Positions 14,584 through 22,750 of a DNA stretch of 64,000 nucleotides are shown here, piece after piece. The position numbers and the translations under genes were made by a program. How positions within the stretch are numbered: the first letter of the stretch is position 1; each line of letters starts with the position of its first letter. A model generated the notes under the pieces. The model saw only the letters and a list, made by a program, of their open reading frames with translations. It was not told the DNA's origin and did no database searches. The DNA lies in assembly GCF_001423585.1 (NCBI RefSeq), contig NZ_LMOP01000008.1, forward strand, positions 670,982 to 734,981, given 5' to 3'. This DNA comes from Xanthomonas sp. Leaf148. Its GTDB lineage: Bacteria; Pseudomonadota; Gammaproteobacteria; Xanthomonadales; Xanthomonadaceae.

Positions 14584-15948
14584 CTAAGCAGCCGATGCCG
14601 AGGGCAGCAACAAGGTCACGCACAGGCCGCCATGCTCGCGGTTGTGCAGCGAAATACGCCCGCCATGCGCTTCGGCAATCTCGCGGGTGAGCGCAAGCCC
14701 CAGCCCGGTTCCATTGCGTTTGGTCGAATAGAACGGCATCAGGGCATTGTGCAAGACCGCTTCGTTCATGCCATTGCCGCGGTCTAGCACTTCGATCCGC
14801 AGCCACTGCGATACGCGTGTCACGCGCACCGCAACGTCGCTATTGGGCGGCTGCGCTTCGCTGCAGGCCTCGTGTGCGTTCTTGAGCAGATTGAGCATGG
14901 CCTGCTCGATCTGCGCTGCATCGATGCGGCTGCTGACATCGCTAAGGTCGCCTTGCACCTGGAACGGAATCTGCTGTTGCAGGCGTTCCAGAAATGGCGC
15001 CCAGGCGATGGTCTGCAATTGCGGCTGCGGCAGCTTGGCAAAGCGCGCATAGCCGCGAATAAAGCCTTCCAGATGACGCGCGCGTTCTTCGATGGTCTCG
15101 AAAACCGTGCCCAGGCGGTCGGTGCGTTCGCGCCGTAACAGTTCGGCGCCGGAATGCGCCAGCGAGGCGATCGGTGCGAGCGAGTTGTTCAATTCGTGGC
15201 TGATCACGCGGATGACCTTCTTCCAGGTCTGCACTTCCTGCCGACGCAATTCGGTGGTCAGGGTGCGGATCAGCAGTAACTCGTGGCCGCGGCCATTGAG
15301 GTGGAAGCTGCGCCGCGAGAGGTGGTAGATCTGCTCGTCGTCCTCGTCGTCGCCGTCCTCGCGCACGGCGAACAGGCAGTCGCCGCCGCGTGCCAATGCG
15401 TCGCGTAGCTCGCCAGGCATGCGTTCGAGCACGTCGTCCAGATGCTGGCCTTCGAGTTTGCGTCCGCCGTAGAGCAGTTTGCGCGCGGCATTGTTGGAAA
15501 AGCCGATGCGGCGCAGCCCATCGCCGCCGGCCACCACCAGCAGCATCGCGACAGGCGTGTTTTGCAGCATGGTGTCGAGCATCAATTCGCGCTGCACCAG
15601 ATCGCGCCGTTGCGCGCGCAGCACGTCGCCGAGTTCGGCATGTGCCTGCACCAACTGCGCCAGTTCGTCGGTGCCGCGCCAGTGCACGCCGAAGTTGTAT
15701 TCGCCATCGCGGTAGCTGCTGGTGGTGCCGGCCAGTGCGCGAAACAGCGAGCGCATCGGTGCGGTAGCGCGGTTGAGGCTGAACCACATTGCGGCCAGCA
15801 AAACGACGACCGAAATCGCAGTCACCTGCCAGCCGCGATCCAGCCAGTACGCCATGAACCACGGCAGCGCGGCCGCCAGTGCCAGCACCGGTAACAGTCG
15901 TAAAAACAGGGCGAACGTGAAGGAGCGATGCCGCATGCGGAGATTCAT
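14584..15948 (-). CDS. NtrY-like sensor histidine kinase
   Basis: A 454-residue membrane kinase. Two hydrophobic segments (about residues 13-35 and 42-57) with a very short loop between them leave almost no periplasmic sensor. A HAMP/PAS-like region follows. The H box VIRVISHELNNSLAPI carries His251, and the ATPase domain has NLLKNAHEAC, DRGNGMN and GTGLGLAL. An acidic patch at 197-205 (REDGDDEDDE) is notable. The start codon overlaps the regulator stop as ATGA, so translation is probably coupled. A longer reading starting at 16215 would overlap the regulator and is rejected. It is the last gene of the export unit starting at 22702. Confidence 0.92.
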   Translation of the reverse strand: MNLRMRHRSFTFALFLRLLPVLALAAALPWFMAYWLDRGWQVTAISVVVLLAAMWFSLNRATAPMRSLFRALAGTTSSYRDGEYNFGVHWRGTDELAQLVQAHAELGDVLRAQRRDLVQRELMLDTMLQNTPVAMLLVVAGGDGLRRIGFSNNAARKLLYGGRKLEGQHLDDVLERMPGELRDALARGGDCLFAVREDGDDEDDEQIYHLSRRSFHLNGRGHELLLIRTLTTELRRQEVQTWKKVIRVISHELNNSLAPIASLAHSGAELLRRERTDRLGTVFETIEERARHLEGFIRGYARFAKLPQPQLQTIAWAPFLERLQQQIPFQVQGDLSDVSSRIDAAQIEQAMLNLLKNAHEACSEAQPPNSDVAVRVTRVSQWLRIEVLDRGNGMNEAVLHNALMPFYSTKRNGTGLGLALTREIAEAHGGRISLHNREHGGLCVTLLLPSASAA

Positions 15949-17288
15949 TCCGGTTTGATGCCGTAACGGTCCATGCGCCGGTACAGCGCCTGCCGGCTCA
16001 ATCCTAATTCGGCGGCGGCCTGCGCGATCACGCCTTGCGCGCGCGCCAACGCCTGTTCGATGCGCGCGCGATCGGGCTCGCCAGCGACTGCTGCTACTGG
16101 CCGCGCCGCGGCGGCGCGTGGCAGGTTCAGATCGCTGGCTTCGATGCGCGCGCCTTGCGCGAGCAGCGACGCACGTTGCAGCACGTTGCGCAGCTCGCGC
16201 ACATTGCCCGGCCACGCGTGCCGTTGCAGCGCATCGCGCGCCTGTGCAGACAGCGGCTTGCCGCCCGCCAGGAAATGCTCGGCCAGTGGCGCGATGTCGC
16301 CCGGACGCTCGGCCAGTGCCGGCAGCGCGATCTCCACGGTATTGAGGCGGTAGTAGAGATCCTCGCGGAAGCTGCCATCGCGGATCATCGACGGCAGGTC
16401 GGCGTTGGTGGCGCTGATCACGCGCACTTTTGCATGCCGCTCGCGATTGGAACCCAGTCGCTCATAGCGCCCGGTTTCCAGCACGCGCAGCAGCTTCATC
16501 TGGCCCGCCAGCGGCAGGTTGCCGATTTCGTCCAGGAACAGCGTGCCGCCATCGGCCGCTTCGAATTTGCCTTCGCGCGCCTTGTTGGCACCGGTGTAGG
16601 CGCCGGCGTCGGCACCGAACAATTCCGCCTCGATCAAGTCGCCCGGCAGAGCGCCGCAATTGAGCGCGATGAAGGGGCCATGTTTGGTTGCCGAGTTGGC
16701 CTGGATGATCTCGGCAATCTTTTCCTTGCCGCTGCCGTTGGGGCCGGTGATCAGCACCGGCAGCTCCGAGCGTGCGACCTGACAGGCGAGCGCGATGGCC
16801 CGTTCGCTGGCGGGGTCGGCGAAGACCGCGCCGCGCAGATCGTAGCGCTGGGTCAGTTGCTCACGGCCGCGGTGCTCGCGTTCGCGGCGGTGCGCGAGTT
16901 CACGGCGCGCCTCGGAGAGTTCGAGCAGATTGTTGACCGTGGTCAGCAGCTTGGTGTCGTCCCACGGTTTGGCGATGTAGTCGGCGGCGCCGGCCTTGAC
17001 CAGGCCCACCGCACTGCCCAGATGGGTCCAGGCGGTGAGCAGGATCACCGGCAGATCCGGATGACGCTGGCGGATCTGGGTAAACAGCGCCTCGCCTTCT
17101 TCACCGGAGGTGGTGTCGGCGGTGAAGTTCATGTCCTGGATCACCAGGTCGAACGCCTGCTCGTCCAGCAGGGCCAATCCGGCCTGCGGCGATGACGCAT
17201 GCCGCGTTTCGATGTCGTGCAAGGAAAACAGCACCTCCAGCGCGGTGGCCACGGCGGTGTTGTCGTCGATGATCAGGATATGCGGCAT
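15945..17288 (-). CDS. NtrC-family sigma-54-dependent response regulator
   Basis: A 447-residue regulator. The receiver domain (1-120) has HILIIDDN, the phosphoacceptor Asp52 in VIQDMN and Lys107 in AKPWD. The AAA+ domain has Walker A GPNGSGKE, the sigma-54 contact loop as GAYTGA (a Phe-to-Tyr form of GAFTGA) and Walker B GGTLFLDEIG. The C-terminal Fis-type helix-turn-helix includes AAELGLSRQALYRRM. The ATG at 17288 begins the receiver motif; an upstream in-frame start at 17375 adds no recognisable sequence. It presumably activates the sigma-54 promoter found before the adaptor gene of the same unit. Confidence 0.95.
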   Translation of the reverse strand: MPHILIIDDNTAVATALEVLFSLHDIETRHASSPQAGLALLDEQAFDLVIQDMNFTADTTSGEEGEALFTQIRQRHPDLPVILLTAWTHLGSAVGLVKAGAADYIAKPWDDTKLLTTVNNLLELSEARRELAHRREREHRGREQLTQRYDLRGAVFADPASERAIALACQVARSELPVLITGPNGSGKEKIAEIIQANSATKHGPFIALNCGALPGDLIEAELFGADAGAYTGANKAREGKFEAADGGTLFLDEIGNLPLAGQMKLLRVLETGRYERLGSNRERHAKVRVISATNADLPSMIRDGSFREDLYYRLNTVEIALPALAERPGDIAPLAEHFLAGGKPLSAQARDALQRHAWPGNVRELRNVLQRASLLAQGARIEASDLNLPRAAAARPVAAVAGEPDRARIEQALARAQGVIAQAAAELGLSRQALYRRMDRYGIKPE

Positions 17289-17482
17289 TGCGCGCTCGAA
17301 AGGCGAAAGGTGTTGGGGAAGTACTTGCCACAGCATACGGCGCCAGCCGGTGTCGCCGCACACTGCGTGCCGCAAGCCGATGGCGATAGCAACGGACGTT
17401 GCGACTGGGCAGTGCGCCGGCGTAGTTGGCGCTGGACGTGTGACAGGCTGGCGCGCGTGCGTGCCCCGGCTGCAAGCGACGG

Positions 17483-22702: not shown

Positions 22703-22734
22703 GGTCGGCGTGCTCGGTGGCGTCACGCTGACAA

Positions 22735-22750
22735 AGCAGGGCGCGTGCCA
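22735..22750 (-). promoter_or_regulatory. Sigma-54 promoter of the export unit
   Basis: On the minus strand the sequence reads TGGCACGCGCCCTGCT. Against the consensus TGGCACG-N4-TTGCW it differs at one base (C for T at the first T of the -12 element), with the invariant GG and GC correctly spaced. It lies 33 bases upstream of the adaptor start, and the unit encodes its own sigma-54 activator. Confidence 0.8.

What the first reader, a model, noticed from the sequence alone, without database searches (positions are those of the whole stretch)
14584..22750. Self-contained sigma-54-controlled ABC-FtsX export system with its own two-component pair
Seen: seven minus-strand genes in a row encode an HlyD-type adaptor, a MacB/LolD-type ATPase, two FtsX-type permeases, a PDZ-like periplasmic protein, an NtrC-type regulator and an NtrY-like kinase, with short gaps and an ATGA overlap at the end. 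A promoter matching the sigma-54 consensus at all but one base lies 33 bases before the first gene. Known: MacAB-type systems export peptides or toxins, and NtrC-type regulators act only with sigma-54. Inference: the unit is autoregulated and responds to a membrane or envelope signal, since the kinase has almost no periplasmic sensor. The heterodimeric permease and the PDZ protein set it apart from plain MacAB.
Basis: partly seen in the sequence, partly recalled or inferred. Interest (0 to 1): 0.72.

Follow-up and report, generated by a model that had tools for sequence, protein, structure and literature searches.

The report
Sigma-54 exporter with swappable permease cassette
A Xanthomonas gene set for a membrane export pump carries its own on-switch, and its regulator, motor and adaptor genes stay nearly the same between species while its two membrane-channel genes are traded between them like interchangeable tool heads; what it pumps is not known.

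Summary
Seven minus-strand genes (22702-14584) encode an adaptor, ATPase, two MacB-type permeases, a small PDZ-like protein, an NtrC-family regulator and a kinase. The promoter matches sigma-54 at 11 of 12 positions; 101 of 101 usable loci score 10-12 (random windows 2.8%). The same enhancer-promoter pair precedes a small exported repeat protein, NCBIfam 'XAC0231 family', in 17 of 17 loci chosen by eye, so the predicted regulon has at least two members. The PDZ gene is not a fixed part.

The main finding is new. Among 24 Xanthomonas, adaptor, ATPase, regulator and kinase are 94-96% identical (median), but the permeases go as low as 63 and 59%, mostly in their periplasmic domains. The permease pair moves as a unit, independently of the other genes (Mantel 0.86 within the pair; 0.03-0.15, not significant, against them). 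Near-identical cassettes occur in different species and different cassettes within one species.

Best reading: a self-regulated MacAB-like exporter whose exchangeable permeases set specificity, probably for envelope-active peptides. That function is inferred.

The parts
21431..22702 (-). HlyD/MacA-type periplasmic adaptor
   Evidence: RND_mfp TIGR01730 133.1 bits (cut-off 94.9); HlyD_3 53.9 bits
20664..21383 (-). ABC ATPase, LolD/MacB/DarD type
   Evidence: ABC_tran 112.6 bits; best NCBIfam row DarD 263.2 bits, below its cut-off 375
19348..20652 (-). Permease 1, MacB_PCD + FtsX; exchanged cassette
   Evidence: Pfam 77.1 and 59.4 bits; genus identity down to 63%
18074..19282 (-). Permease 2, MacB_PCD + FtsX; exchanged cassette
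   Evidence: Pfam 44.7 and 51.1 bits; profile of 28 relatives matches solved MacB 5gko over positions 9-403, E 1.5e-23
17483..17953 (-). Small PDZ-like protein with a signal-peptide-like start; accessory gene in the exchanged segment, not found or different in many relatives
   Evidence: PDZ_2 24.6 bits, below cut-off; in the window and 9 of 23 other Xanthomonas loci
15945..17288 (-). NtrC-family response regulator (receiver, AAA+ with GAYTGA, Fis-type HTH)
   Evidence: Sigma54_activat 216.2 bits, Response_reg 73.8, HTH_8 46.4; GAYTGA invariant in 8 sequences
14584..15948 (-). Sensor histidine kinase, two membrane helices with a short loop, HELNN phospho-acceptor motif (motif name recalled)
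   Evidence: HATPase_c 77 bits; HisKA 21.4 bits, below cut-off; helices 10-28 and 40-58; alignment
22735..22751 (-). Sigma-54 promoter TTGGCACGCGCCCTGCT; +1 predicted near 22724
   Evidence: 11 of 12; score 10-12 in 101 of 101 usable loci; two such sites in the genome, control 1
22794..22870 (-). Predicted enhancer array for the regulator (TGTCCG..CGGACA repeats, about -70 to -146)
   Evidence: sequence; palindrome in 99 of 101 loci, random 1.9%; TGTCCGN0-6CGGACA at four places in the genome against three for the control

Best explanation
This is a self-regulated, tripartite MacAB-like exporter: adaptor, separate ATPase, a pair of different MacB-type permeases, and a TolC-like channel supplied from elsewhere in the genome. 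Shown by sequence: the operon carries its own two-component pair, a sigma-54 promoter and an enhancer array, conserved in the relatives examined. A small exported-looking repeat protein (XAC0231 family) has the same enhancer-promoter pair. The permease pair, with an accessory gene, is a cassette exchanged between strains and species while the rest of the locus is inherited with the surrounding genes. Inferred: the kinase, which has almost no periplasmic part, reads the working state of the permeases or the membrane rather than binding a ligand itself. The phosphorylated regulator binds the TGTCCG..CGGACA array and drives sigma-54 polymerase, raising expression of the pump and the small protein. 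The variable periplasmic domains of the permeases choose which compound is handled. The most likely substrates are envelope-active peptides or similar compounds met in competition, which would explain why many permease variants are kept in circulation.
For: Gene families. Promoter and array conservation. Second target gene. Ten outer-membrane-factor genes in the genome, counted from 20 Pfam OEP hits that lie in pairs, none in the operon. Among 24 Xanthomonas, median pairwise identity is 96, 96, 95 and 94% for adaptor, ATPase, regulator and kinase, but 80 and 75% for the permeases, minimum 63 and 59%. Variability lies in the periplasmic domains: 20-residue windows there average 48-85% column identity, against 77-100% in the membrane and C-terminal parts. 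Exchange is seen directly. X. cissicola and X. arboricola pv. guizotiae share permeases at 97.7 and 98.8% DNA identity in a background of 87-94%; two X. arboricola strains have a background of 95-97% but permeases at 80 and 77%. S. maltophilia and S. pavanii show the same. AU tests: the chassis data reject joining X. cissicola with X. arboricola guizotiae (p 2e-4) and reject the window's permease class as a clade (p 9e-33); the permease data reject the four-strain X. arboricola clade (p 1e-5).
Against: No substrate, phenotype or expression data. No permease dN/dS above 0.16 in ten pairs, so rapid adaptive change is not shown; the pattern is reshuffling of old variants. Kinase and permease variants do not covary (Mantel 0.03), so specific kinase-permease contact is not supported, although the membrane parts of the permeases are conserved and could hold the contact. 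The compared clades were chosen after seeing the identity table. Part of the deep divergence may be retention of different tandem paralogues. Genome-wide counts of the array motif and of the promoter pattern alone do not exceed their controls; only their combination and their conservation do. Outside Xanthomonas the contrast is weaker, because adaptor, regulator and kinase vary more there.
Confidence: 0.55

Rival explanations
1. A dedicated secretion system for a self-made product, for example the co-regulated XAC0231-family repeat protein, which would reach the periplasm by its signal peptide and be moved out by the pump.
For: Same enhancer and sigma-54 promoter in all 17 loci read (loci chosen by eye); exported-looking repeat protein with TL..VQVRPSAEQ units. 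That MacB-family pumps can take substrates from the periplasm is recalled.
Against: The small protein is well conserved in the genus (81-93% identical in five genomes) while the permeases are not. It was found in 33 of 149 family genomes, while 148 of 149 have some permease 2 match, an unknown part of which are paralogues.
Confidence: 0.2
2. The permease differences come only from keeping different members of an ancestral tandem array of permease pairs, with no functional meaning.
For: One to five pairs occur, with a sixth permease 2 in one locus, and the tree shows several old paralogue groups; the window's class groups with a Stenotrophomonas permease, apart from most other Xanthomonas.
Against: It cannot explain cassettes at 98-99% DNA identity inside an 87-94% background between species, nor lower synonymous divergence of permeases than of flanking genes in pairs such as L081/L090.
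Confidence: 0.15
3. An envelope-maintenance transporter of the Lol or phospholipid type, with permease variation unrelated to substrate.
For: ATPase is LolD-like (226.2 bits of a 307.75 cut-off); locus lies between glmS and glmU, the amino-sugar supply for the envelope.
Against: It has a HlyD-type adaptor and MacB-type periplasmic domains, and housekeeping lipoprotein transport would not be expected to tolerate exchange of permeases that differ by up to 40%.
Confidence: 0.1
4. Permeases vary because phages or bacteriocins use them as receptors, so variants are kept by balancing selection whatever is transported.
For: Variation is concentrated in the periplasmic domains and is shared across species.
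Against: The domains face the periplasm, not the surface; no receptor evidence was sought or found.
Confidence: 0.1

Closest known systems
MacAB-TolC tripartite exporter
   Same: HlyD/MacA-type adaptor; permease 2 profile matches solved MacB over nearly its full length; no outer channel in the operon
   Different: Separate ATPase, two different permeases, in some relatives several tandem pairs, own NtrC-type regulator pair; the MacA and MacB equivalog cut-offs are not met
BceAB-BceRS peptide-antibiotic sensing and detoxification module
   Same: FtsX-type permease with separate ATPase beside a two-component pair whose kinase lacks a real extracytoplasmic sensor
   Different: Two MacB-topology permeases instead of one 10-helix BceB, an adaptor is present, the regulator is NtrC-type with sigma-54. 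Bce features are from PMC5985334 passages and recall
ADOP-family duplicated permeases
   Same: Permease 1 matches the first half (164.5 bits) and permease 2 the second half (187.9 bits) of the ADOP model
   Different: Split into two genes; far below the ADOP cut-off of 622.3
Paralogous operon in the same genome (L165, G000:C1)
   Same: Adaptor, ATPase, permease, NtrC-type regulator, kinase in one order, with a sigma-54 promoter at 11 of 12
   Different: Permease is one fused 864-residue chain; its palindrome is TGTACGAAATCGTACA; an ortholog at 70% identity or more is in 6 of 35 genus genomes, own included
Darobactin exporter DarBCD
   Same: DarD is the best NCBIfam row for the ATPase
   Different: Below the DarB, DarC and DarD cut-offs; darobactin biosynthesis genes were not sought

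Membership tests
MacAB (MacB) exporter | MacB_PCD and FtsX permease domains | tested here: met
   both permeases; solved MacB are the best matches of the permease 2 profile
MacAB (MacB) exporter | ATPase fused to a single homodimeric permease | tested here: not met
   three separate genes
MacAB (MacB) exporter | MacA/MacB equivalog score | tested here: not met
   MacA 63.7 of 342; MacB 215.2, 53.9 and 52.0 of 966
BceAB-BceRS | 10-helix permease with one large extracellular domain | tested here: not met
   two permeases of 434 and 402 residues with MacB-type domains
BceAB-BceRS | kinase without extracytoplasmic sensor domain | tested here: met
   at most about 11 residues between two predicted helices
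BceAB-BceRS | signalling needs the transporter | not testable with these tools
   needs permease deletion with a reporter
NtrC-family sigma-54 activators | receiver, AAA+ with GAFTGA-type loop, Fis-type HTH | tested here: met
   loop reads GAYTGA
NtrC itself (nitrogen regulator) | NtrC equivalog score | tested here: not met
   341.2 of 558.6
ADOP duplicated permease | one chain with two permease halves above cut-off | tested here: not met
   164.5 and 187.9 of 622.3
LolCDE lipoprotein exporter | LolCE and LolD equivalog scores, no adaptor | tested here: not met
   18.7 and 23.2 of 362.45; LolD 226.2 of 307.75; adaptor present

The most novel reading that the evidence does not exclude
A Gram-negative counterpart of the Bce sensing-and-detoxification module, rebuilt from MacB-type permeases and sigma-54 control, in which the permease pair is both recogniser and pump. 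It behaves like an immune-type locus: a conserved chassis keeps one regulatory circuit while recognition cassettes circulate between species and stack up to five pairs in one operon.
Probability: 0.35. Interest if true: 0.85.

Novelty: new variant of a known kind. Interest (0 to 1): 0.62.

Why it matters
Efflux pumps are usually treated as fixed genes with broad substrates. Here the regulator, motor and adaptor are constant while the specificity part is traded between plant-associated and opportunistic bacteria. That gives a natural series of permease variants on one chassis, with a defined promoter, enhancer and second target gene, so both the substrate and the sensing mechanism become testable. 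None of nine searches of the open-access library listed a paper that, by its title and abstract start, describes this system; papers outside that library were not searched.

Tried and rejected
Positive selection: NG86 dN/dS in ten pairs gave at most 0.16 for permeases, so no claim of adaptive substitution. Kinase-permease co-variation: the kinase membrane segment does not sort with permease class, so direct contact is not claimed. A cargo peptide gene between adaptor and ATPase: a small ORF with a shared motif lies there in 4 of 41 loci by a strict motif, with two more (L053, L065) seen by eye, and the 47-base space in the window leaves no room for it, so it was rejected as the general cargo. 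Paralogous permeases as a variability control: the fused ADOP paralogue has an ortholog (70% or more) in 6 of 35 genus genomes, so it is only a spot control; in G064 and G118 it is 96% identical to the window genome's while permease 1 is 65%. A predicted fold was wanted but not obtained; solved structures were searched by profile instead. Literature: XAC0231 was taken from NCBIfam, and XCC0209 and XAC3642-3644 were guesses; one paper (PMC6639005, passages seen) lists XAC3643 among sensors found in X. citri and not in X. arboricola pv. pruni, which I could not tie to this kinase. The X. oryzae RpoN1/RpoN2 transcriptome (PMC7970052, passages seen) has no mention of ABC transporter, efflux, HlyD, permease or MacB in its main text; its supplements were not seen. 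Passages of PMC3162934 and PMC10782981 showed nothing on this system.
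Full report
WHAT IS THERE. The window lies in a 5.2 Mb Xanthomonas-type genome (three copies of the Xanthomonas sRNA sX9; nearest named relative in the chassis tree X. dyei). Seven minus-strand genes run from 22702 to 14584: adaptor, ATPase, two MacB-type permeases, small PDZ-like protein, NtrC-family regulator, kinase. The spaces are 47, 11, 65, 120 and 194 bases, followed by an ATGA overlap. 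Internal terminator-like and sigma-70-like sites do not exceed chance. The locus sits between glmS and glmU, both on the plus strand (named by recall; the glmU product's domains are), with a beta-helix gene between the kinase end and glmU.

CONSERVED ORDER. I fetched 40 loci picked from the higher-scoring rows of a permease 2 search of 149 family genomes; all 40 have adaptor, ATPase, one or more permeases, regulator and kinase in this order, and 31 show glmS and glmU at the two ends with nothing else of the set, the rest being cut or, in one, carrying an extra kinase match. Of 80 named genomes found with the kinase, 60 show the complete order from glmS to glmU, 19 are cut by the end of the stretch (in part because many permeases fill it), and one, X. 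bromi L103, has no regulator match. Three of 35 genus genomes have no permease 1 match, so the system is not essential to the genus.

CONTROL REGION. The promoter at 22751-22735 matches the sigma-54 consensus at 11 of 12 positions. Just upstream, at 22870-22794, lies a cluster of TGTCCG and CGGACA half-sites, a plausible binding array for the regulator. I examined 121 loci (window, 40 unnamed, 80 named). 101 were usable; 18 have no adaptor gene in the stretch and 2 too little upstream sequence. All 101 have a promoter score of 10-12 of 12 (24, 70 and 7 loci), and 99 have a GTCCG-N0-10-CGGAC palindrome; 4000 random windows from the same loci, from which the true regions were not excluded, give 2.8% and 1.9%. 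At least ten unnamed loci share a 60-mer with a named one, so some genomes are probably counted twice. Single motifs are not enriched genome-wide: the palindrome has four places against three for the control, and the full promoter pattern two against one.

OUTSIDE THE FAMILY. A kinase profile found 9 of 274 class genomes at E 1e-40 or better, three of them in the family (only the best six candidates per genome are scored). I fetched the other six. In L257 the order adaptor, ATPase, permease 1, permease 2, regulator, kinase is the same, the promoter scores 12 of 12 and TGTCCG sites lie upstream; no glmS or glmU match lies in the stretch. L258 has the same order and a promoter of 10 of 12 that lacks the -12 GC. 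L262 has ATPase, two permease pairs, regulator and kinase at low identity with no adaptor match. L259 and L261 have the regulator-kinase pair divergent from a weakly similar adaptor and ATPase. L260 holds only regulator and kinase.

A SECOND TARGET. The pattern TGTCCG-N0-10-CGGACA-N20-50-TGGCAC was found in 56 of 149 family genomes, 75 matches, against 12 for the pattern read backwards. I did not assign all 75; several look like chance matches inside genes. Besides the operon, a second class of matches lies before another gene. I read 17 such loci, chosen by eye because their sites looked alike; all 17 lie upstream of a small protein with a signal-peptide-like start and repeated VQVRPSAEQ-like units, followed by a gene that I recognise by recall as trmL. 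NCBIfam calls the window genome's protein XAC0231 family (218.7 bits, cut-off 140). A relative was found in 33 of 149 family genomes. The leader also holds a second conserved stretch, GGTGTACTACCTTACTACCACACC, whose role I do not know.

THE PERMEASE CASSETTE. Among the window and 23 named Xanthomonas loci (L079-L101), median pairwise protein identity is GlmS 97, adaptor 96, ATPase 96, regulator 95, kinase 94 and GlmU 93, but permease 1 is 80 (minimum 63) and permease 2 is 75 (minimum 59). In 32 single-pair loci among L107-L158, mostly Stenotrophomonas, the contrast is weaker: GlmS 93, ATPase 94, adaptor 85, regulator 87, kinase 84, GlmU 84, permeases 73 and 69. The variation lies in the periplasmic domains. 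Pairwise identities of the two permeases go together (Mantel 0.86, 0 of 2000 permutations) but those of permease 2 do not follow adaptor, regulator, kinase or ATPase (0.08, 0.10, 0.03, 0.15; 416, 350, 741 and 136 of 2000 permutations as high). DNA profiles in windows of 200-250 bases show the borders near the start of permease 1 and shortly before the regulator. X. cissicola L087 and X. arboricola guizotiae L101 differ by 6-14% in the flanking genes and by 1-2% in the permeases; X. arboricola L098 and L101 differ by 3-5% in the flanks and 20-23% in the permeases. S. maltophilia L140 and S. pavanii L150 share permeases at 98-99% in a 90-95% background, while L140 and L142 (a Stenotrophomonas MAG) differ by about 20% in a 93-98% background. 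Not every pair differs: X. arboricola L098 and L100 have permeases at 94 and 90% against 95-97% in the flanks. Trees disagree formally; the groups tested were chosen after seeing the data, and one of them (L089 with L090) is rejected by the permeases (p 0.004) but not by the chassis (p 0.35). The number of permease pairs varies: of the 40 unnamed loci, 26 have one pair, 5 two, and 5 have three to five (one of these with a sixth permease 2); 3 have one permease 1 with two permease 2, and one has four pairs and is among the five. The larger tree (97 pairs) shows several old paralogue groups and places the window's class beside a Stenotrophomonas permease (fast method with long branches, so deep placement is uncertain). 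Both retention of different tandem copies and recent exchange are therefore likely at work; only the second is demonstrated directly.

WHAT SPEAKS AGAINST A SIMPLE ARMS RACE. dN/dS is 0.05-0.16 for the permeases in ten pairs, above most chassis genes but well below 1. The kinase does not co-vary with the permease class.

HOW IT MOST LIKELY WORKS. Shown: families, order, promoter, array, second target, exchange. Inferred: phosphorylation of the regulator by the kinase, binding to the array, positive autoregulation, assembly with one of the ten outer-membrane-factor genes in the genome (20 OEP hits in pairs), permease-set specificity, and peptide-like substrates. The review of MacB relatives (PMC5985334, passages seen) describes BceAB as a MacB relative that senses and detoxifies bacitracin with a two-component pair; that is the closest working model, although the BceB architecture is not met here. 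A paralogous operon in the same genome (L165) has the same plan with a fused permease and its own palindrome, so a family of such self-regulated exporters is likely.

VERDICT. The kind of system is known; the combination of sigma-54 self-control with an exchangeable permease cassette is a new variant as far as nine literature searches of an open-access library can tell.

Noticed in passing
L165:4288-11725 (-) (G000:C1:788001-805000): A second, paralogous operon: adaptor, ATPase, fused 864-residue ADOP-type permease, NtrC-type regulator, kinase, with a sigma-54 promoter and the palindrome TGTACGAAATCGTACA upstream.
   Followed up: partly
L169:1583-2041 (+): XAC0231-family repeat protein with the same enhancer type and a 12 of 12 sigma-54 promoter; its leader holds a second strongly conserved element GGTGTACTACCTTACTACCACACC in the 17 loci aligned.
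   Followed up: partly
window 8-83 (-), 11719-11794 (+), 45102-45177 (+): Three copies of the Xanthomonas small RNA sX9 in one 64 kb window, one of them just upstream of glmU.
   Followed up: no
window 13267-14439 (+): Beta-helix gene between the kinase end and glmU that has no match in several relatives; L098 and L101 differ sharply there.
   Followed up: no
L046:7285-7497 (+), L063:6464-6688 (+), L061:12696-12956 (-): A small ORF between adaptor and ATPase with a shared F-D-L-x-W-S-x-Q-x-L-like motif; no Pfam or NCBIfam match in the two tested (L046, L053); 4 of 41 loci by strict motif.
   Followed up: partly
L046:10973-12793 (+), L065:7006-8994 (-), L047:8580-9176 (-): The slot between permease 2 and the regulator holds different exported-looking ORFs in different genera, where the window has the PDZ-like gene.
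   Followed up: no
L129: A contig filed as Bacillus subtilis SK7B5 carries a Stenotrophomonas-like version of the locus with glmS and glmU, probably contamination or a mislabel.
   Followed up: no
G000:C8:1137103-1137119 (+): The only other TTGGCACGN4YTGCW site in the genome; its downstream gene was not examined.
   Followed up: no
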